Program-made: the position numbers and the translations under genes
Part shown: positions 2,589 through 13,985 of the stretch, piece after piece
Layout of the letters: every line of letters begins with the position of its first letter
Position numbering within the stretch: the stretch's first letter is position 1
The notes under the pieces: generated by a model
Told to the model about the DNA's origin: nothing
What the model saw: the letters and a program-made list of their open reading frames with translations, nothing else
Database searches by the model: none
DNA from: Clostridia bacterium
Lineage (GTDB): Bacteria; Bacillota; Clostridia; Oscillospirales; Acutalibacteraceae
Direction: 5' to 3'
Assembly (NCBI GenBank): GCA_017439545.1
Contig: JAFSIW010000030.1
Coordinates: 1 to 34,239, forward strand
DNA length: 34,239 bases

Positions 2589-3911
2589 TTAAGCTTCAAC
2601 AGGGAATTTATCGATTTTGATAACAACCTTTTGCAGGATCATCAAAGCATCGGCAGCATCGGCTTTTTTGTCGCCGTTTACGTCAGCAGCAAGCAGTTGT
2701 TCGTCGGTAAACTTCACTTTACCTACAACATTTTTCAGAACTTCCAAAGCGTCGGCGGAATCAGCCTTTTTGTCACCGGTTACGTCACCGTATACTTCCA
2801 CAGTAGGACCAATGGGGTCGGGCCAGCCGATACCAACGGCGGCGGCGCAGGCAACCAGCTTTTCATAAGCGGCAGGATCAACCAAAGGCTTTTGTTCATC
2901 GGTCAAAGCTTCATAGGCGTCAATCTTTTCTTGTACGTCGTATGCTTCCCATTCTTCAATTTCGTCGGGATCGGTCAGTTGATTGATCAAAGCAGTTACA
3001 ACGTCGGCTGCCGTTTGGTTTTCGTCGGCAGGGTAGAAGAAGGGATTGACAGCTGCGGGATCATATACAACGGTTTTGCCGGTGTCATAAGCGAGCCACC
3101 AACGGTAACCGGTGGCGATGGCGCAGGGCAGCTCGTCCATCTCGGTCTTAGAGTTGGTTACGGCAATGTTGTAATAGAAAGAGGTGTAGTGTTCATAACC
3201 TTCATAGTTGTGAGCCAGAGGAACACGGGTTTCGCAAACGTAGCCGGTCAGCTTGCCGCTGGCATCGGTTTTATGTCTGGCAACCATGTTGTCACTGCAT
3301 TTGAAATAGTTGTCAGCGCTCTTGTTGCCTTCGGGATCCTTCAAGGGTTGATCGGCAAAGATGTATTTGTTATTGTGACCTTGGGTGTCGGTAACGGCCA
3401 AGTTGTGAGCTATCAAACGGAAGTGGGTATCGGCATCCACGTCGCTGGGTTCGTTGGTGTTGAAGTGACCGGAGCAGGACATAACGTCGGTATCGATGTA
3501 AAAGTCGATGTTTTCCATTTGTTGATGGTATTCATTTCTGGTACCGTCATCATTCATTATGTGGTCGATGATATTGGGGTCATCTACGTCTACGTAGAAA
3601 TAAGCATATTGGTCGTCATAAGCGGCATAGATCTTAACCTTAACTTTTTCAAAAAATTCAGGCAGATCCAATTCACCCATGCCAATATTAAAGTCGCGGG
3701 AGATAACGGGCAGGGTGGTGTCGTCAATGCTGTTAAAGTAGAAGTAGCAGTTGTTAGCAACCGCCCATGCGTCGTCACGATAAAATTCGTCTAACTGAGC
3801 GTCAACCACAAACTTGGGTTCTTCGGCCCCTTCTTCAGCCGCAACGGTAAACATCGTGGCAAAAGAGGTGATCATAGCAAGTGCCAAAATAAGGCAAAGC
3901 AATTTTTTCAT
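2589..3911 (-). CDS. Secreted protein with CBM9/DOMON-like domain and C-terminal type I dockerin
   Basis: 440 residues. Residues 1-25 form a signal peptide (MKKLLC, hydrophobic core, VAA cleavage site). Residues about 33-285 look like a CBM9-like beta-sandwich: VVDAQLDEFYRDDAWAVANN at the start and a VKIYAAYDDQYAYFYVDVDD strand pattern typical of carbohydrate-binding family 9. Around 310-355 is a short helical segment containing YEALTDEQKPLVD, common as a spacer in clostridial surface proteins. Residues 371-440 are a dockerin with two Ca-binding repeats, GDVTGDKKADSADALEVLKN and ADVNGDKKADAADALMILQK. No glycosidase domain is seen, so it is probably a non-catalytic sugar-binding subunit docked on a scaffoldin. 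ATG at 3911 has AGGAGG 8 nt upstream; the TTG at 3914 would be only 5 nt away. It is a single-gene unit. Confidence 0.85.
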   Translation of the reverse strand: MKKLLCLILALAMITSFATMFTVAAEEGAEEPKFVVDAQLDEFYRDDAWAVANNCYFYFNSIDDTTLPVISRDFNIGMGELDLPEFFEKVKVKIYAAYDDQYAYFYVDVDDPNIIDHIMNDDGTRNEYHQQMENIDFYIDTDVMSCSGHFNTNEPSDVDADTHFRLIAHNLAVTDTQGHNNKYIFADQPLKDPEGNKSADNYFKCSDNMVARHKTDASGKLTGYVCETRVPLAHNYEGYEHYTSFYYNIAVTNSKTEMDELPCAIATGYRWWLAYDTGKTVVYDPAAVNPFFYPADENQTAADVVTALINQLTDPDEIEEWEAYDVQEKIDAYEALTDEQKPLVDPAAYEKLVACAAAVGIGWPDPIGPTVEVYGDVTGDKKADSADALEVLKNVVGKVKFTDEQLLAADVNGDKKADAADALMILQKVVIKIDKFPVEA

Positions 3912-4138
3912 CAATAATTCCTCCTAAAAATTGTTACACCCAATCGTACAGTTTGGGTTATCTATATCATAACATTATTCTTTGCAAAAAAACATTGCTT
4001 CTGTGATTTTTCAAGACGGTTAATATAGTAATTATGAACAAATTATCTCATCGCTTCCGATAGAAAGAGGGATTCTAAGAAAAATATAGCAAAATCCACT
4101 CGATATTGCGGGAAAAACAAGAATTCATTACAAAAACA
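3912..4138. other. Divergent intergenic region with a 5' leader hairpin
   Basis: This 227-bp stretch separates the minus-strand dockerin gene from the promoter of the plus-strand AraC gene. It holds a small hairpin, ACCCAA (3938-3943) with TTGGGT (3953-3958), which would lie in the dockerin gene's 5' leader. The dockerin promoter is not clear: minus-strand TATGAT/TATAGA-like boxes occur around 3960-3975 without a convincing -35. Nothing coding is seen. Confidence 0.4.
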
Positions 4139-7842: not shown

Positions 7843-9085
7843 ATGGACCAAACGGGCCTGTTATACCGCCTATTTTACCATGTCCACCATTTTCAGTTTG
7901 CCGCCTGTGCTGTTTATGACCTTTCGGGAACTGTACGGTATTTCTTATACCTTGCTGGGTACTTTGGTACTGACCAATTTTTGTACCCAGTTGGCCATCG
8001 ATTTGATCTTTACCCTGTTTGCCAAGCATTTTAACGTAAAAAAAGTGGTGCGTGTTATGCCGCTCATCACCACCATGGGCTTGTCCGTTTATGCGATCGT
8101 CCCGATGCTTTCACCGCAAAACGCCTATGTGGGGCTTTTTACGGGAACGGTGTTGTTTTCGGTTTCGGCGGGACTTTCTGAAGTGTTGCTCAGCCCTATC
8201 ATTGCCGCCATCCCCTCAGATACCCCCGGTCGGGATATGAGTCTGCTCCACTCCCTGTATGCCTTTGGCGTGTTCACCGTGGTGGTGGTCAGCACCGCCT
8301 TTTTGCGATTGTTCGGGCAAGAGTATTGGATGTATCTGACCTTGTTTTTAGCGGTTTGGCCCATTTTGGCGTCGGTGATGTTCTTCTGTTCCCCCATGCC
8401 CGATATGGCAACCGATCACGCCCCACAGCAAGCCAAAACAAGAACGGGTAAGCGTGCGCTGGGACTTGCGCTGTGCGTAGGATGCATCTTTTTCGGCAGT
8501 TGCGCCGAGAATGCGATGTCCAACTGGATCTCGGGCTACGTAGAAAAAGTGCTGAACATTGACAAATCATGGAGCGATTTGTTGGGAATGGCTCTGTTCG
8601 CCATCTTGTTAGGACTTGCCCGTATCACCTACGCCAAATACGGCAAAAAGATCATTCCTATTTTGCTGATTGGTATGATCGGCGCTTCGGTTTGTTATCT
8701 CACGGTGGCCTTTACCAACAACACGGTGGTAGCGATTACCGCTTGCGTGCTGACCGGCTTGTTTACCTCTATGCTCTGGCCCGGCACCTTGATTATGATG
8801 GAAGAAAACATCCCCGGTGCAGGGGTGACTGCCTTTGCTTTAATGGCGGCGGGCGGTGACCTTGGGGCATCGGTTGCGCCCCAATTGCTTGGCGCGGTCA
8901 CTGACTGGGTGGCAGCAGGACCTGCCGCCGACCGTATGGGACAGATTCTGTCGGTATCTGCCCAACAGGCGGGACTGAAAACGGGAATGCTGGTCTGTTC
9001 GGTTTTTCCCATATTGGGCACGGTCGTGGTTTTGTGCCTCATCGCATATTTCAAAAAGCAAAAAAAGGGTACTGTCGCTCACTGA
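7826..9085 (+). CDS. MFS transporter
   Basis: About 419 residues with around 12 hydrophobic segments and a basic central loop near residues 200-215 (QQAKTRTGKR), the standard two-times-six MFS layout. The PGRDMSLLHSLYAFGV and GSCAENAMSNW segments resemble sugar-transporting MFS members of the FucP/glucose-mannose symporter type, but substrate and direction are not decided. Start is ATG 7826 or the adjacent ATG 7829; AAGGAG at 7814-7819 serves either. It overlaps the end of the radical SAM gene by 17 nt, showing tight coupling. The stop codon lies in the loop of the following terminator, so this is the last gene of the operon. Confidence 0.9.
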   Translation: MMHPYKWTKRACYTAYFTMSTIFSLPPVLFMTFRELYGISYTLLGTLVLTNFCTQLAIDLIFTLFAKHFNVKKVVRVMPLITTMGLSVYAIVPMLSPQNAYVGLFTGTVLFSVSAGLSEVLLSPIIAAIPSDTPGRDMSLLHSLYAFGVFTVVVVSTAFLRLFGQEYWMYLTLFLAVWPILASVMFFCSPMPDMATDHAPQQAKTRTGKRALGLALCVGCIFFGSCAENAMSNWISGYVEKVLNIDKSWSDLLGMALFAILLGLARITYAKYGKKIIPILLIGMIGASVCYLTVAFTNNTVVAITACVLTGLFTSMLWPGTLIMMEENIPGAGVTAFALMAAGGDLGASVAPQLLGAVTDWVAAGPAADRMGQILSVSAQQAGLKTGMLVCSVFPILGTVVVLCLIAYFKKQKKGTVAH

Positions 9086-9103
9086 ACGACAGTACCCTTT
9101 TTT
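9061..9103. terminator. Strong bidirectional terminator
   Basis: A perfect 17-bp inverted repeat (9061-9077 with 9087-9103) and a 9-nt loop, flanked by A6 and T6, so it works on both strands. It ends the MFS gene (whose stop codon is in the loop) and the convergent holin gene. Confidence 0.95.
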
Positions 9104-9105
9104 GT

Positions 9106-9543
9106 TTATTCCTCGGTTTGGTTTTTCAGCAAGGCGATGGCCTTTTGCAAAAAAGCGGGGATGGGCGCACCCAACGCCCCCGCGTTTTCAATAATCGAGC
9201 CAAGCTCGGTACAAATATACCAGATGCATACCAATGGGAGCAATAAGGTTTTGTATTCAAAGGGTAGGGTAAGCATGGGCAAATTGGCCGTAATCAAGTG
9301 CACCAGCAAATCAAAAATGGCTGATGCGCCTACTGCTAAAAACATACCGATCTTGCCGAAAATTCCTTCCCTGGCAAGGCGGGAACACCACGCCCCACAG
9401 CGAAAAGCGGCAACCGTGCCGGTGATCCAATCCACACCTGCGCATACAATGACCAGACAAATCAGCCAACCTGACCAACCCAATAAAGCGGCGGGCAGCG
9501 CAAGCAGAGCGGCCAGAGAAAATTTTGCCAAAGTAACATTCAT
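9106..9543 (-). CDS. Phage holin family protein (toxin secretion/phage lysis type)
   Basis: 145 residues with three hydrophobic segments (about 8-35, 65-85 and 95-118), the shape of the phage_holin_4/TcdE-type family. The conserved AGVDWITGTVAAF segment followed by SRLAREGIFGKIGMFLAV matches the D-x-(I/L)-TG...S-x-x-G-x-x-G-K pattern of that family. These proteins form inner-membrane pores that let an endolysin or toxin pass. Its ATG overlaps the endolysin's TGA in an ATGA arrangement, so the two are translationally coupled. In Clostridia, holins of this type act both in prophage lysis and in non-lytic protein export (TcdE); which applies here is unknown. Confidence 0.88.
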   Translation of the reverse strand: MNVTLAKFSLAALLALPAALLGWSGWLICLVIVCAGVDWITGTVAAFRCGAWCSRLAREGIFGKIGMFLAVGASAIFDLLVHLITANLPMLTLPFEYKTLLLPLVCIWYICTELGSIIENAGALGAPIPAFLQKAIALLKNQTEE

Positions 9544-10478
9544 TGCTTGTTCACCGTCCTTCGCAAAATCAGATTGGCGTCTTGTGCACCTACCTTGCCG
9601 TCTGCATCCATATCGGCAGTTTGCTGCTGGGAAGCATCAAAGGTTCTTTTGCCTACCACCGCTTGTAATACGTTAAGAGCATCTGCGGCGTTTACCTTGC
9701 CGTCGGCGTTCACGTCGCCGTAATTATATCCCAGTGCCGCCCAGGTTTTCGGCCCGGCAATGCCGTCTACCGACAGCTTGCGCGCTGTTTGAAAAGCTCG
9801 TACCGCTTCACGGGTCTTGGCTCCGAAGATGCCGTCCACCGTCAGAGGGTTAAAGGCAAGCGCCAAGGCGATCTGCATATGATTCAGTCGTTTTTGCAGG
9901 GAAGTGACGGCATCACCGCTGTCGCCTTGCTGCACCGTTTGGGGCAGGATAACAGGAGTCACCGTAATCGGTTTGTCAGCAAGCTTGCGTTTCACGTCAG
10001 CTCTGAACATATCCATGGTGTAGCCGAAATGGGTCCACCAATGCTCGGGATCTCCGTGATTACTGGCAATGCCTTTTTGGTAGCCCTCCTTGTGGCTGAT
10101 CACGTGGTTCTCGTTCAGGGAGTACAAGCGGCACAAATAGGCGGTTAGTTCCACCGCATTTTGATAGCAAGCGGTAAAGTAGGTTTGATTGGTTTTCCAA
10201 TCAGTAGGCTCGCACATCTCAAAGGCGATGTGGGTATTGTTACCGCTGTCAGCACAATGCCACGCTCTGTGGTTCCAAGGCAAATGCTGACAAACCACGG
10301 TGTCGTCTACAAAAGCGTGCACCGCCACCGCCAGATCTGCCCGATTCCAGCGGCTGTACCAACTTGGTGCCATCACCCCGGGAGTTGCGGTAGAATGCAC
10401 CATAATGCCCTTGGGGGTAATGGTACGCCCTGCCTGATAACAATCGTTTTTGGTGATATAGGTTTGTTGTAAATTCAT
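9540..10478 (-). CDS. N-acetylmuramoyl-L-alanine amidase (endolysin) with peptidoglycan-binding domain and dockerin
   Basis: 312 residues, three modules. Residues about 15-165: Amidase_2 domain, with zinc ligand His28 in IMVHSTATPG and the SHKEGYQKGIASNHGDPEHW segment (128-147) holding the other ligands; this arrangement is typical of clostridial phage endolysins. Residues about 183-250: PG_binding_1 domain (VTSLQKRLNH, VDGIFGAKTREAVRAFQ, VDGIAGPKTWAAL). Residues 253-312: type I dockerin with two Ca-binding repeats, GDVNADGKVNAADALNVLQA and ADMDADGKVGAQDANLILRR. No signal peptide is present, so export would depend on the holin. ATG 10478 is chosen for its GGAGG 9 nt upstream; the longer form from 10499 has no such site. 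A dockerin on a holin-partnered endolysin is unusual. Confidence 0.9.
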   Translation of the reverse strand: MNLQQTYITKNDCYQAGRTITPKGIMVHSTATPGVMAPSWYSRWNRADLAVAVHAFVDDTVVCQHLPWNHRAWHCADSGNNTHIAFEMCEPTDWKTNQTYFTACYQNAVELTAYLCRLYSLNENHVISHKEGYQKGIASNHGDPEHWWTHFGYTMDMFRADVKRKLADKPITVTPVILPQTVQQGDSGDAVTSLQKRLNHMQIALALAFNPLTVDGIFGAKTREAVRAFQTARKLSVDGIAGPKTWAALGYNYGDVNADGKVNAADALNVLQAVVGKRTFDASQQQTADMDADGKVGAQDANLILRRTVNKQ

Positions 10479-10524
10479 ATCCGTATTCCTCCGATTCATA
10501 TTCAGTTAAGAGTTCGTACCTATT

Positions 10525-11757
10525 CTATACCGGCGGATTTAACAGCTTGACCACGGAATAGGAGTAGTTGGACGGATCGTAGTCCAGATACATCAAAAGG
10601 GGCTGTCCCGCAGGTATGACCTTTCCGTTAAGGTGTGAGGTGTTGGTCCACTTACCGTTGTAATAGACGGTGACACCCGAACACATCGGTCCGTACCAAT
10701 AACTGCCATCAAAGACCACATCATCCGTTGCCGTGGCAATAACCGAGCGTCCGCCGGAAAAAAAGGTATCGCTGACCTCAGGGAAGGTTAACTGAGGCAT
10801 CCCTGTGTTGGAATAGTCGGGAGTAACCGTAAGCACCGCCGGGACAGACTGATGAGAATAGTTGGGGTTGAGATATACCGGCTGTCCACTTTGGTTTACA
10901 TAAATCAGCATCGGACGGTTGGGAACAATGGCATTATTCGGCATTTGGTCGGATAAAGAAGCACCGTCATATCGATACAGTGTATGATAAATTCCCGCGT
11001 TGGTGCAAATATACGTTTGATGCCACGTATTCGTATACCGGGGATTGACCAGAAATACCATCCCCACGAGATCGGGAAGATCCTCGCTGATGGGTAGATG
11101 CAAATAAGAGTAAGAGTTTTCTGATGCCTGATAGATCCTCTGATGCATCTTCACCGATACGGCACCGTTGGTAATAGAGATTCCGTTGCCTTCCGTAAAA
11201 TCGCCGTCACCTTTTTCTCCGCATGGGATCCCCAAATCCAGCGTAAACTTCATATCGGTATTTTGGCTTACCGTGGCGGTAGCAGCCTGATCGTAGGGCA
11301 AGGTTTCCACCTTGCCTACCGTCAGATCAAAGTGCTCGGCAATGTCCTGTACCCGATTCAGGTATTCTTCCATTTGATTGGTCAAGGGCGAGTCTGCTCC
11401 TTGACTTGTGTCGGGCAGAGAGGTGGCCAACCCCAGCGGGAAGGGGTCGGATTTGAATACTAAGGTGAATTCTCCCGCCTGTTCGGTGTAGGCACATAGT
11501 TGACATAATACCGACGTCCCCAAACGGGTCACCCGATCGGGCAGACTGTAGCGGATTATCCCGTCAGTAGGATAAAGTTGCTCTGAAACAAGAGTTTTAT
11601 CGGCATTAGCAAAGTATAGGCGGTAGTAGCCCGCACCCTCCGGCGGCTCGCTCAAAGCAAGGCAGAGTGTTGCGGCATGATGATCTCCCATCACACCGCC
11701 GTTGACGCCGTGGGTAATATGACCGTTGGCATCCATGGTTACGTTGATCTGTTTCAA
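10525..11757 (-). CDS. Phage baseplate/tail-fibre-like protein (BppU-type N-terminus)
   Basis: 410 residues from a TTG start at 11757, which has a perfect AGGAGG 7 nt upstream; the first ATG (11738) has none. The N-terminal 110 or so residues look like the immunoglobulin-like domain of phage baseplate upper proteins (INVTMDANG..., ADKTLVSEQLYPTDGIIRYS, then the GTSVLCQLCAYTEQAGEFTL strand pattern). A linker follows with TFTLDLGIPCGEKGDGDFTE-like composition (the string LDLGIPCGEKGDGDF is visible), which resembles the short collagen-like G-x-K-G-D joint seen in phage tail proteins. The C-terminal half is beta-rich, rich in Tyr, Asn and Ser, and unrecognised; it may be receptor-binding. It is first in the three-gene cassette with endolysin and holin. 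Confidence 0.65.
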   Translation of the reverse strand: MKQINVTMDANGHITHGVNGGVMGDHHAATLCLALSEPPEGAGYYRLYFANADKTLVSEQLYPTDGIIRYSLPDRVTRLGTSVLCQLCAYTEQAGEFTLVFKSDPFPLGLATSLPDTSQGADSPLTNQMEEYLNRVQDIAEHFDLTVGKVETLPYDQAATATVSQNTDMKFTLDLGIPCGEKGDGDFTEGNGISITNGAVSVKMHQRIYQASENSYSYLHLPISEDLPDLVGMVFLVNPRYTNTWHQTYICTNAGIYHTLYRYDGASLSDQMPNNAIVPNRPMLIYVNQSGQPVYLNPNYSHQSVPAVLTVTPDYSNTGMPQLTFPEVSDTFFSGGRSVIATATDDVVFDGSYWYGPMCSGVTVYYNGKWTNTSHLNGKVIPAGQPLLMYLDYDPSNYSYSVVKLLNPPV

Positions 11758-11770
11758 TCCAATTCCTCCT

Positions 11771-11839
11771 TTAAATGGTGGGCAAACCAATAATAGGTAC
11801 AAAAAAGGCGATCGTTGCATAAAAATGTGCAACGGGGAA
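11771..11839 (-). promoter_or_regulatory. Divergent upstream region of the phage-like cassette
   Basis: The minus-strand promoter of the tail/endolysin/holin cassette must lie here or beyond. A TATTAT (about 11795-11790) is the best -10 candidate, but no acceptable -35 is found at the right distance, so the cassette may use an alternative sigma factor or an activator. Confidence 0.25.
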
Positions 11840-11868
11840 TTGCATTTTTTAAAAAAATGTTGTATAAT
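11840..11868 (+). promoter_or_regulatory. Sigma-A promoter of the 11899 membrane-protein gene
   Basis: TTGCAT (11840-11845), 17-nt spacer, TATAAT (11863-11868), about 24 nt from the likely transcription start to the ATG. Confidence 0.8.
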
Positions 11869-11898
11869 CAAATCAATATCAAGCAATGGGAGAGTACT

Positions 11899-12438
11899 AT
11901 GGATATTTTTTGCGAACAAATTGTTAAAAAGAAAAAAACCACCTTTGAAAAATGTACCGTGCTTCTGATCTGGGTGGCAGGTTGGTTTTTATGTATGGGT
12001 CTGGTTTTCTTAGGATTGGTGTTAATGGGCGGTCGCTTTTTTATGCCCGCTTTGCTTTTGGCAGCAGGCGTGGTGTTCGGTGTGTTTAAACTCAGTTCCC
12101 GCTTTAATCTGGAATATGAGTATTCGGTCACCAACGGCGTGCTGGACGTGGATAAGATCATCAACCGCAGTGATCGCAAACGGATGATCTCGGCTGAAAT
12201 CGCAACATTTGACCGCTTTGAGGTGTATAACGACGAAAAAGCTATGACCGAACAAAACAGTTATGACCTGACCGTGACCGCCGTAGCCGACTCCCAAGGG
12301 GAGGAGGAGATCTACGTGGCAGTGTTCCGCCATCCTGTAAAAGGTCGGGTGCGGGTGATTTTTCAACCCGGTCAAAAGGTGCTGGACACGGTGATTGCCG
12401 CATTGCCCCGCCATATGCAGCCCCGTCGGTTCGGATAA
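11899..12438 (+). CDS. Small membrane protein with two transmembrane helices (possibly DUF6106)
   Basis: 179 residues. A basic N-terminus (EQIVKKKKTTFEK) is followed by two hydrophobic helices (about 23-45 and 48-65) and a soluble C-terminal domain of about 110 residues. That domain has YEYSVTNGVLDVDKIINRSD and FRHPVKGRVRVIFQPGQ, a pattern like PH-like/bacterial membrane-associated beta domains. It is reminiscent of the DUF6106 family of Oscillospirales, but I am not certain. ATG 11899 has GGGAG 6 nt upstream, and sits 31 nt after the -10 box; the longer ORF from 11815 would start upstream of the promoter. Function unknown. A terminator follows. Confidence 0.75.
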   Translation: MDIFCEQIVKKKKTTFEKCTVLLIWVAGWFLCMGLVFLGLVLMGGRFFMPALLLAAGVVFGVFKLSSRFNLEYEYSVTNGVLDVDKIINRSDRKRMISAEIATFDRFEVYNDEKAMTEQNSYDLTVTAVADSQGEEEIYVAVFRHPVKGRVRVIFQPGQKVLDTVIAALPRHMQPRRFG

Positions 12439-12445
12439 GAAAAAC

Positions 12446-12477
12446 GCCGCAGTCCAATGGTCTGTGGCAGTTTTTTT
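12446..12477 (+). terminator. Terminator (possible attenuator) before the NAD(P)H-hydrate repair gene
   Basis: GCCGCAG (12446-12452) pairs with CTGTGGC (12462-12468), with inner CC/GG pairs, followed by seven Ts (12471-12477). The next gene's AGGAGG begins at the very next base (12478), so no separate promoter fits between; that gene depends on read-through or on transcription from upstream. Confidence 0.8.
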
Positions 12478-12488
12478 AGGAGGATATT

Positions 12489-13985
12489 ATGGAATTGTTA
12501 ACCGTTGCGCAAATGCGTCAGGCAGAAAAGCAGGCCTATGATAACGGGCTATCCTATGAACAAATGATGGAAAACGCAGGGAAGTGTGCGACCGATTGGA
12601 TCCTATCTCGGTCCTTTGGTCATCATGCCGTGATCCTCTGCGGTAACGGCAACAACGGTGGCGACGGTGCCGTGGTAGCCCGTCGGCTGTGTCTGGCAGG
12701 CTATTCGGTATGTGTGATCTGGCTGCAGGGCGCTCCCAAAACCGAAGCGGCAAGCCGCATGGCAAATCGATTATCCGACCTTTCGCTTTTTCAAGTGGAT
12801 TACACTCTTGATTCAAAAGCGGCGCTGTCAGCTTTAGAACCCTGTGATTTTGTTGTGGATGCACTGTTTGGCATCGGTTTTCACGGGCAGTTGCCGCCGG
12901 CGGCAATCGAAGTGTTTTCTCGGTGCAAAGAGCGATCCTTGCCGGTGATTGCGTTGGACATACCCTCGGGTGTGTCAGCGGATCATGGCGTGGTTGCAGC
13001 CGGTACGCCATTGTGTCAGCATACCCTGTCCTTCCATAGTTATAAATATGGACAGGTGCAGTATCCCGCCGCTGAGTATTGCGGAAACACCGTGGTGTTA
13101 GACATTGGATTGCCTCACCAAAACGAACACCAGGCCTTCGTTATTGACCGTGATTTTGTGGCTTCTCTGCTTACCCGACCGAAAGGTGACACCCACAAGG
13201 GAACGTTTGGCAAGGCTTCTCTGCTTGTGGGTAGTCTTGGAATGGCAGGAGCGGCAACCCTTGCGGTACAAGGCTGCTTGCGTTGTGGTGTAGGATTGTG
13301 TTATCCTGTGGTACCGCGAGCCATTTATCCCATAGTAGCGTGCGCCGCACCGGAAGCGGTCTATCGTTTATACGAGGAAGGTGCCTCTCCCGCTGAAATA
13401 TTGCGCCAATGCGATGACGGCTCGGCTTTGCTTGCGGGGTGCGGACTTGGCGATACGCCCCTTACCCGTGACCTTGTTTATGAACTGGTGAATTCCTTTT
13501 CGGGATGTCTTGTGCTGGATGCGGATGGTATAAATGCCTTGGTTTCGCATATAGATGAAGGGAAGAAACGGAAAGCCCCGTGGATTATCACGCCCCATCC
13601 CGGAGAAATGGCACGTCTGCTTCATACCGATATTGCCACGGTACAAAAGAGTCGGGTAGCGGTAGCTACACGCTTTGCCGCTGAACACGGTTGTGTGGTG
13701 GTGCTAAAGGGAGCGGGCACGGTGATTGCCTCGCCCGACGGTCGTGTGGCTGTGAATACCACCGGCAACAGCGGATTGTCCAAAGGGGGGAGCGGGGATC
13801 TGTTGGCCGGTATGATTACCTCTTTTTGTGCCCAAGGAATCTCTCCTTTTGAGGCTGCCTGTGTCGCCGTTTGGTTGCACGGCACAGCGGCTGATATGAC
13901 CGCAAAGGAACTGTCTTGTCGCAGTATGTTGCCTACGGATTTGATTGGGCAATTGCCTCGTCTGTTTCTTCAATTTGAAGCATAG
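12489..13985 (+). CDS. nnr: Bifunctional NAD(P)H-hydrate epimerase / ADP-dependent dehydratase
   Basis: 498 residues, the normal size of the fused enzyme. The N-terminal YjeF_N domain (1-215) epimerises damaged R-NAD(P)HX to the S form and carries GNGNNGGDG (52-60), VDALFGIGFHG and ALDIPSGVSAD. The C-terminal ribokinase-like domain (about 225-498) dehydrates S-NAD(P)HX with ADP and carries GSLGMAGAATLA, LDADGINAL, ITPHPGEMARL and the nucleotide-binding NTTGNSGLSKGGSGDLLAG. The canonical GNPGMATGGTGDVL is here GNSGLSKGGSGDLL, a conservative variant. ATG 12489 has AGGAGG 5 nt upstream. The lipoprotein gene follows 11 nt later, in the same unit. A housekeeping metabolite-repair enzyme. Confidence 0.95.
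   Translation: MELLTVAQMRQAEKQAYDNGLSYEQMMENAGKCATDWILSRSFGHHAVILCGNGNNGGDGAVVARRLCLAGYSVCVIWLQGAPKTEAASRMANRLSDLSLFQVDYTLDSKAALSALEPCDFVVDALFGIGFHGQLPPAAIEVFSRCKERSLPVIALDIPSGVSADHGVVAAGTPLCQHTLSFHSYKYGQVQYPAAEYCGNTVVLDIGLPHQNEHQAFVIDRDFVASLLTRPKGDTHKGTFGKASLLVGSLGMAGAATLAVQGCLRCGVGLCYPVVPRAIYPIVACAAPEAVYRLYEEGASPAEILRQCDDGSALLAGCGLGDTPLTRDLVYELVNSFSGCLVLDADGINALVSHIDEGKKRKAPWIITPHPGEMARLLHTDIATVQKSRVAVATRFAAEHGCVVVLKGAGTVIASPDGRVAVNTTGNSGLSKGGSGDLLAGMITSFCAQGISPFEAACVAVWLHGTAADMTAKELSCRSMLPTDLIGQLPRLFLQFEA

What the first reader, a model, noticed from the sequence alone, without database searches (positions are those of the whole stretch)
9106..11757. Stand-alone tail-fibre / dockerin-endolysin / holin cassette
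Three phage-type genes form a tight minus-strand operon: a baseplate/tail-fibre-like protein, an Amidase_2 endolysin and a TcdE-type holin. No capsid, terminase, portal, integrase or regulator is nearby, and both flanks are ordinary chromosomal genes with clean terminators. The endolysin lacks a signal peptide but carries a complete two-repeat dockerin. An enzyme that leaves through a holin and can then bind a cohesin would join phage-derived lysis or export to the cellulosome. Possible roles: non-lytic export of wall hydrolase to the scaffold, release of cellulosomal proteins by controlled lysis, or a killing device with the fibre as receptor binder. The role is inference; the domains are visible.
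Basis: partly seen in the sequence, partly recalled or inferred. Interest (0 to 1): 0.8.

Follow-up and report, generated by a model that had tools for sequence, protein, structure and literature searches.

The report
Cellulosome-tagged phage lysis gene cassette
An uncultured Clostridium relative keeps three phage-derived genes on their own in its chromosome, and the wall-cutting enzyme they encode carries the same docking tag that the cell uses to hang enzymes on its surface, so a lysis or export device seems to have been wired into the cellulosome system.

Summary
Minus-strand genes for a fibre-like protein, an Amidase_2 + PG_binding + type I dockerin lysin and a Phage_holin_4_1 (TcdE-type) holin lie alone among ordinary genes. 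The trio sits beside the same DUF6106 gene in two sister species. A fourth genome keeps fibre, dockerin-lysin and holin near that gene, but with CHAP for Amidase_2 and another holin family; a fifth lacks the trio at the site. Of 35 complete dockerin genes read in the genome, 34 have a signal-like hydrophobic segment; the lysin alone does not. Membrane-anchored cohesins are encoded. Leaderless dockerin-lysins by holins also occur in four other genera, with Amidase_3, NlpC/P60 or an unassigned lysin; one lies in a prophage-like cluster. None of 19 complete related lysins in viral contigs has a dockerin. Dockerins were apparently recruited repeatedly onto holin-linked lysins in cellulosome-bearing Clostridia. 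Best reading: a domesticated, T10SS-like lysis/release cassette whose lysin uses the dockerin as a host-derived surface anchor. Export, cohesin binding and role are inferred. Not found in print in the searches made. Verdict: new variant of a known kind, high interest.

The parts
10525..11757 (-). fibre-like protein, 410 aa, conserved N-terminal ~180 aa with a G(D/E)H(N/H)A motif, variable C-terminus; no signal-like segment
   Evidence: homologues in 16 other genomes of 300 searched
9540..10499 (-). dockerin-bearing endolysin as listed (319 aa); more likely start ATG at 10478 (312 aa)
   Evidence: orthologues start at the equivalent codon
10044..10418 (-). Amidase_2 domain; His28, His129, His141 (numbered from 10478) are among the residues invariant in 10 lysins compared
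9732..9920 (-). PG_binding_1 domain
9561..9722 (-). type I dockerin, two repeats
   Evidence: 45.4 bits, cut-off 22.9
9106..9543 (-). holin, Phage_holin_4_1 / TcdE-type, 145 aa; overlaps the lysin stop by 4 nt
   Evidence: only PF05105 match in this genome
9061..9103 (-). intrinsic terminator after the holin (20-pair stem, T-run)
11801..11834 (-). hairpin (CGTTGCA..TGCAACG) and T-run in the leader upstream of the fibre gene; a similar hairpin is seen in all 4 cassette-bearing genomes of the genus
11899..12438 (+). gene with a DUF6106 match (24.8 bits, just under the cut-off of 25), conserved divergent neighbour that marks the site

Best explanation
A chromosomal, vertically inherited, phage-derived fibre-lysin-holin cassette that works like a Gram-positive type 10 secretion (lysis/release) device. 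The holin lets the leaderless lysin (and the leaderless fibre) out of cells that express it, and the amidase opens the wall. The dockerin serves as a host-derived surface anchor in the place where phage endolysins carry a cell-wall-binding domain: it holds the freed lysin on cohesins at the surface of the producing cell, its remnants or its kin, so that the enzyme acts locally and does not spread. Shown by sequence: the domains, lack of a signal-like segment, coupling to the holin, conservation at one site, replacement of the lysis parts with the dockerin kept, cohesins in the genome, independent recurrence. Inferred: holin-dependent exit, lysis, cohesin binding, the purpose.
For: Same trio beside the same DUF6106 gene in 2 sister species, with the NAD(P)H-hydrate gene also there in G002. 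Lysin and holin differ mostly at third codon positions, like the neighbouring DUF6106 gene. In G003, near the same marker gene: fibre N-domain, CHAP + dockerin, holin_5_2. 34 of 35 complete dockerin ORFs read in the own genome have a hydrophobic segment near the N-terminus; the lysin is the one without. Two cohesin proteins that end in a membrane helix; cohesins over cut-off in 12 of 12 genomes tested. Leaderless lysin + C-terminal dockerin beside a holin, or one small gene away, in 8 genomes of 5 genera (a 9th, G189, has the lysin where the contig ends), with Amidase_2, CHAP, Amidase_3, NlpC/P60 and an unassigned lysin type. In those outside Amidase_2 the dockerin is the only C-terminal Pfam domain apart from overlapping minor hits, mostly EF-hand; a relative of the G419 lysin in G250 (55% identity) carries PG_binding_1 there instead. 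20 viral contigs hold relatives of these lysins: 19 are complete and have no dockerin, 1 is cut by the contig end. Precedent: a host-derived wall-binding domain keeps endolysin CD16/50L on post-lytic remnants and is proposed to spare neighbours (PMC9045149, abstract and outline read).
Against: The window lysin keeps a PG-binding domain, so the dockerin is not its only anchor. Its dockerin departs from the genome consensus at conserved columns; G002's lacks the same Leu, G001's has it. The sister genome G004 lacks the cassette at the site, so it is dispensable. In G012 the dockerin-lysin sits at the end of a cluster with terminase-, sheath- and baseplate-like genes, so phages can use it too. 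G071 and G189 have a second leaderless NlpC/P60-dockerin gene with no holin beside it. Of 35 holin matches in 26 dockerin-rich genomes only 4 lie by a lysin with a full dockerin.
Confidence: 0.45

Rival explanations
1. Non-lytic holin export of a wall hydrolase to the cell-surface cellulosome, where it digests the walls of other bacteria (a bacteriolytic cellulosome component, the 'lyticome' idea).
For: Dockerin-bearing wall hydrolases are reported in cellulosomes and the 'lyticome' was proposed (PMC6403190, passages read); R. flavefaciens has an NlpC/P60-dockerin protein at the surface (PMC3573020, passages). Holins are argued to move folded proteins without lysis in clostridia (PMC9527704, abstract and passages).
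Against: Amidase_2-dockerin proteins of genus g114 in this family (L088, L089, L093, L097) and the R. flavefaciens protein start with signal peptides or signal-like segments, so a holin is not needed for that. The trio keeps the phage lysis layout with a fibre gene.
Confidence: 0.22
2. A kin- or competitor-killing device: lysis of a few producers frees the fibre as receptor binder together with the lysin, the dockerin joining the parts or holding them on cohesin-bearing cells.
For: The fibre diverges faster than lysin and holin (37% against 59-68% identity), as receptor binders do. In G419 a second protein next to the fibre also has a dockerin (27.8 bits).
Against: No tail or injection genes found in the contig; no known domain in the fibre; no immunity gene recognised. 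An endolysin acting from outside needs no fibre.
Confidence: 0.13
3. A prophage relic, or a lysis module that still serves a phage, tailocin or gene transfer agent encoded elsewhere in the genome.
For: Related fibres, lysins and holins are found in phage-type surroundings and phage records. G012's dockerin-lysin is in a prophage-like cluster. The own genome is only 87% complete.
Against: Same site and intact frames in 3 species, with differences concentrated at third codon positions; parts swapped but layout kept in G003. Whole-genome search for capsid, portal, terminase or sheath was not done, so a partner elsewhere is not excluded.
Confidence: 0.2

Closest known systems
Type 10 secretion system / lytic cassette (Serratia ChiWXYZ, Yersinia YenLC)
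   Same: Holin + peptidoglycan hydrolase outside a phage, among chromosomal genes; release of cytoplasmic proteins (PMC10847048, abstract and passages)
   Different: Gram-positive host (inferred from kinship), no spanins seen, fibre gene included, lysin carries a dockerin, no known cargo gene next to it
TcdE/TcdL holin-endolysin remnant of the C. difficile toxin locus
   Same: Phage-derived holin and endolysin remnant kept in a chromosome (PMC6200909, abstract and passages); that TcdE belongs to TIGR01593 is recalled from the family's name
   Different: Here the endolysin is whole and carries a dockerin; no toxin gene recognised alongside
Endolysin CD16/50L with a host-derived CWB2 wall-binding domain
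   Same: A host surface-anchoring module at the end of an endolysin, with an anchoring role shown by assay (PMC9045149, abstract and outline)
   Different: CWB2 binds wall polymer; a dockerin would bind a protein (cohesin). CD16/50L is in a phage, this is a chromosomal cassette
Cellulosomal wall-hydrolase-like proteins, e.g. RflaF_05439 (NlpC/P60 x2 + X-dockerin)
   Same: Wall-hydrolase-type domain + dockerin (PMC3573020, passages; its activity was not proven there)
   Different: That protein has a signal peptide; this lysin has none and is coupled to a holin

Membership tests
Phage endolysin, Amidase_2 type | Amidase_2 domain over cut-off with conserved histidines | tested here: met
   72.7 bits, cut-off 26; H28, H129, H141 invariant in 10 lysins. 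That these are the zinc ligands is recalled
Phage endolysin, Amidase_2 type | No signal peptide, gene next to a holin | tested here: met
   crude hydropathy test
Dockerin protein of a cellulosome | Dockerin_1 domain over cut-off, two repeats | tested here: met
   45.4 bits, cut-off 22.9; with departures at conserved columns
Dockerin protein of a cellulosome | Cohesin in the same genome | tested here: met
   2 over cut-off, 1 under it
Dockerin protein of a cellulosome | Sec signal peptide | tested here: not met
   the only one of 35 complete dockerin ORFs without a hydrophobic segment near the N-terminus
Dockerin protein of a cellulosome | Binds a cohesin | not testable with these tools
   needs protein work
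TcdE-type holin | PF05105 / TIGR01593 over cut-off | tested here: met
   99.4 and 58.7 bits
Type 10 secretion system | Holin + peptidoglycan hydrolase outside a phage | tested here: met
Type 10 secretion system | Spanins (Gram-negative members) | tested here: not met
   no further gene in the operon; not expected without an outer membrane
Type 10 secretion system | Holin-dependent release of a cargo | not testable with these tools
   no experiment
Prophage | Capsid, portal, terminase, tail or integrase genes nearby | tested here: not met
   none found among the ORFs scanned in this 34 kb contig; the rest of the genome was not searched for them
Phage tail fibre | Match to a known fibre/baseplate family or fold | tested here: inconclusive

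The most novel reading that the evidence does not exclude
Cellulosome-bearing Clostridia have repeatedly built a device from phage parts: stand-alone fibre-lysin-holin cassettes whose lysin, and in one genome also a fibre partner, are delivered through a holin and displayed on surface cohesins. It would be a second, Sec-independent entrance to the cellulosome and a way to arm or localise programmed lysis.
Probability: 0.3. Interest if true: 0.85.

Novelty: new variant of a known kind. Interest (0 to 1): 0.72.

Why it matters
All 34 other complete dockerin proteins read in this genome look Sec-secreted. A dockerin on leaderless, holin-linked lysins in five genera, with several catalytic domain families, points to selection for linking phage-type lysis or export to the surface scaffold. 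It makes testable whether holins deliver folded proteins to cellulosomes, whether a dockerin can serve as an endolysin's anchor, and whether fibre-degrading bacteria use programmed lysis.

Tried and rejected
Rejected: 'only inside prophages'. Rejected: 'no cohesin'. Rejected: dockerins as a common phage-lysin domain: the dockerin alone matched 3 of 50,697 phage records; the 2 examined (H16, H18) are proteins with signal-like starts, not lysins; H17 was not examined. Led nowhere: Rfam scan of 8500-12600 gave 3 matches, all far below gathering scores; the fibre profile has no PDB sequence match; no promoter-like site was found in the fibre leader. The genome-contig scan gave two distant amidases without the trio. 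The second holin of G012 (contig C83) lies by a GH25-like frame without dockerin (by eye); its third is at a contig start. Papers PMC9377139, PMC9012536, PMC5967307 and PMC6700490 were opened for passages; those shown hold nothing on dockerin lysins.

Limits: the contexts of the fibre homologues (L064-L076) and of G012's phage-like genes other than Baseplate_J and LysM were labelled by eye from ORF translations. 'XhlA-like' (used in my notes and script tags) for the small membrane/coiled-coil proteins is a label from recall; Pfam gave no XhlA hit. In one search only 25 lysin loci were scanned for dockerins, though 47 genomes had matches. The profile used to find dockerins was built from 15 dockerins of the window's genus and may miss distant ones. 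The 26 'dockerin-rich' genomes were picked by the number of first-look candidates, plus G000, G003 and G004. Cohesins were not searched in G071, G189 and G327. The fibre profile is not known to have been run on G004: it is not named in the answer.
Full report
What is in the window. The window is a whole 34,239-base contig of an unnamed draft genome of 1.88 Mb in 85 contigs, 87% complete. The lysin has Amidase_2, PG_binding_1 and Dockerin_1 domains over their cut-offs, and the holin matches Phage_holin_4_1 and TIGR01593. Lysin and holin overlap by four bases. The more likely lysin start is ATG at 10478, after a GGAGG, as in the orthologues. The fibre has no family match apart from a weak PHROG tail hit (E 9e-4). 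The other genes scanned are ordinary chromosome: alcohol dehydrogenase, AraC regulator, radical SAM, MFS transporter, NAD(P)H-hydrate enzyme, release factor, Mur ligase, D-Ala ligase, spore germination genes and others. The 10 other genes scanned with PHROGs showed no phage structural family.

Conservation in the genus. Five genomes of the genus are held. G001 and G002 carry the same trio beside the same DUF6106 gene; in G002 the NAD(P)H-hydrate gene, the AraC gene and the dockerin gene 2589-3914 are also nearby, and in G001 (a short contig) the dockerin gene. Lysin identity to the window is 65% and 59%, holin 63% and 60%, fibre 37%. Differences fall mostly at third codon positions: lysin pairs 0.26-0.33, 0.23-0.25, 0.44-0.53 for positions 1, 2, 3; holin 0.26-0.33, 0.14-0.22, 0.53-0.66; DUF6106, the control, 0.30-0.38, 0.26-0.32, 0.49-0.58. 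That fits purifying selection and not a decaying relic; the fibre is looser (0.50-0.54, 0.37-0.42, 0.57-0.65). G004, judged nearest by its AraC gene (72% against 54% in G002), has the block without trio and MFS gene, so the trio can be lost; no PF05105 or PF16079 holin was found elsewhere in G004. In G003, two genes away from DUF6106, there is a fibre with the same N-domain, a 74-residue membrane/coiled-coil protein, a CHAP + dockerin lysin (54.5 and 45.6 bits) and a Phage_holin_5_2 holin (71.4 bits). Enzyme and holin type have been exchanged while the dockerin and layout stayed; whether by swap in place or by a second insertion is not settled. PF05105 occurs once each in G000, G001 and G002 and not in G003 or G004.

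The dockerin is out of its usual setting. The lysin search gave 85 matches in the own genome, nearly all of them to the dockerin part. Of 53 dockerin ORFs in the stretches taken, 35 were complete; 34 of these have a strongly hydrophobic segment within the first 70 residues of the longest frame (12-residue mean hydropathy 2.18 or more) and the lysin does not (1.38). This is a crude test, but the gap is clear. The genome encodes a cohesin protein with a C-terminal membrane helix, a second with an NPATG-helix-charged tail that looks like a sortase signal (both my reading), and a cohesin match under the cut-off fused to a dockerin. A freed dockerin protein would therefore have surface partners. 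Caution: the lysin's dockerin keeps most calcium-loop and core columns, but has Asn for an otherwise invariant Leu in repeat two and differs at column 21, where Glu prevails. Binding is thus plausible, not shown.

The pattern recurs. In 26 genomes, chosen mostly for many dockerin candidates, PF05105 gave 23 matches in 13 genomes (two of them pieces of one frame) and PF16079 12 matches in 8 (two under the cut-off). Of these 35 matches, 4 lie by a lysin with a full dockerin (G000, G003, G012, G419) and one by a lysin with half a dockerin, 19.7 bits and under the cut-off (G020). The lysin of G419 as query in 398 genomes of the family (9 matched) brought in G071 and G189 (NlpC/P60 + dockerin) and G327 (Amidase_3 + dockerin). 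With G001 and G002 this makes 8 genomes in 5 genera with a full dockerin lysin beside a holin or one small gene away (in G012, G419, G071 and G327 a 97-112-residue gene lies between); in G189 the contig ends where the holin would be. All these lysins lack a signal-like segment (G001 and G002). G071 and G189 share the neighbour gene of a stand-alone cassette that also holds a fibre with the GEHNA motif, so a second genus shows inheritance at one site. G419 has, divergent from the lysin operon, a fibre and a further protein with a dockerin of 27.8 bits. In G012 the lysin ends a prophage-like cluster: Pfam Baseplate_J and LysM matches, and terminase-, sheath- and tube-like genes recognised by eye. 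G071 and G189 also have a second leaderless NlpC/P60-dockerin gene without a holin beside it, which speaks against a strict need for an adjacent holin.

Controls. With the window lysin, 47 of 398 family genomes matched; only G000-G002 matched through to the dockerin, and G020 partly. Of 25 lysin loci scanned, four (one genus, g114) have a dockerin on the N-terminal side of the amidase or in a frame just before it, with signal-like starts and no holin tagged: probably secreted enzymes. Relatives of four lysins in viral contigs: 1 + 2 + 2 + 15 = 20; 19 are complete and none of these has a dockerin, 1 is cut by the contig end. In 50,697 phage records the catalytic part is found in 412 at up to 50% identity; of the 60 best rows listed, one (a Streptomyces phage, 28% identity) covers 84% of the query and reaches residue 283, and two Burkholderia phages match the stretch 187-302; these were not read, and the dockerin alone did not match them.

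A wider class. The fibre profile matched 17 of 300 family genomes, 13 of them outside the genus. By eye, 7 of these 13 sit in stand-alone cassettes between ordinary genes with varied lysins and small membrane proteins (L064, L065, L067, L068, L070, L074, L075), 5 in phage-type surroundings (L066, L069, L072, L073, L076), and 1 is unclear (L071). No dockerin was tagged on a lysin in these 13 loci; in L071 and L072 no lysin was made out. Three cassettes, two of these (L074, L075) and the dockerin-bearing one of G419 (L135), have a regulator with sigma-70 region 4 and Cro-type HTH matches, some below the cut-offs. The dockerin version thus looks like the cellulosomal edition of a broader domesticated cassette, for which I know no name.

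Mechanism. The layout (leaderless lysin, coupled holin) makes holin-dependent exit the simplest route; whether cells lyse is open. T10SS cassettes were proposed as non-lytic, and later work found controlled lysis (PMC10847048, abstract and passages); a review argues for non-lytic holin transport in clostridia (PMC9527704, abstract and passages). For the dockerin, the most telling precedent is CD16/50L, whose host-derived domain keeps the enzyme on remnants (PMC9045149, abstract). In the G003, G012, G327, G071 and G419 lysins the dockerin is the only C-terminal Pfam domain apart from overlapping minor hits, in the place of a wall-binding domain, and G250 shows a related lysin with PG_binding_1 there. 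Hence the anchor reading, at 0.45. Export to a bacteriolytic cellulosome, a killing device, and service to a phage or tailocin remain open.

Novelty. Searches for dockerin with endolysin, holin, prophage, wall hydrolase, lysozyme or lysin found reports of dockerin-bearing wall hydrolases in cellulosomes, but no dockerin on a holin-linked lysin (listings, with passages of the nearest papers). The library lacks most subscription papers.

Noticed in passing
window 11801-11834 and leaders in L024, L025, L045: A GTTGCA/TGCAAC-type hairpin (GTTGCC/GGCAAC in G003), with a T-run close behind in three of the four, lies upstream of the fibre in all 4 cassette-bearing genomes of the genus; operator, attenuator or terminator is not decided.
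   Followed up: partly
L135 13493-14059 (G419): A 188-residue protein next to the fibre also carries a dockerin (27.8 bits), so fibre parts too may be docked.
   Followed up: partly
L239 1390-2124, L240 1321-2001 (G071, G189): Second leaderless NlpC/P60 + dockerin gene, downstream of a large membrane protein and with no holin beside it.
   Followed up: partly
L136, L165 (G012 contig C92): Prophage-like element with terminase-, sheath- and baseplate-like genes beside what looks like a cell-division gene cluster ends in an Amidase_3 + dockerin lysin and a holin_5_2.
   Followed up: partly
L064, L065, L067, L068, L070, L074, L075: Stand-alone fibre/lysin cassettes without lysin dockerins between ordinary genes in other genera (by eye); L074 lies next to a Cas9-like gene. 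Two of them have a regulator with sigma-70-region-4 and HTH matches, and several a ~70-100 residue helical protein just before the fibre.
   Followed up: partly
window 2589-3914: Dockerin protein with a signal-like start and an otherwise unassigned part, found near the cassette site in G001, G002 and G004 too.
   Followed up: no
L088, L089, L093, L097 (genus g114): Signal-like start and dockerin ahead of an Amidase_2 domain with no holin tagged: probably Sec-secreted amidases. In L097 the two parts are in different frames.
   Followed up: no
L147, L157 (G003 cohesin loci): G003 has 21 cohesin matches against 3-4 in the other four genomes of the genus, so scaffold complexity differs sharply between close relatives.
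   Followed up: no
L163 538-1626 (PV036439.1): A dockerin protein with a signal-like start lies at the end of a Ruminococcus phage record; it may be flanking host DNA or a cargo gene.
   Followed up: no
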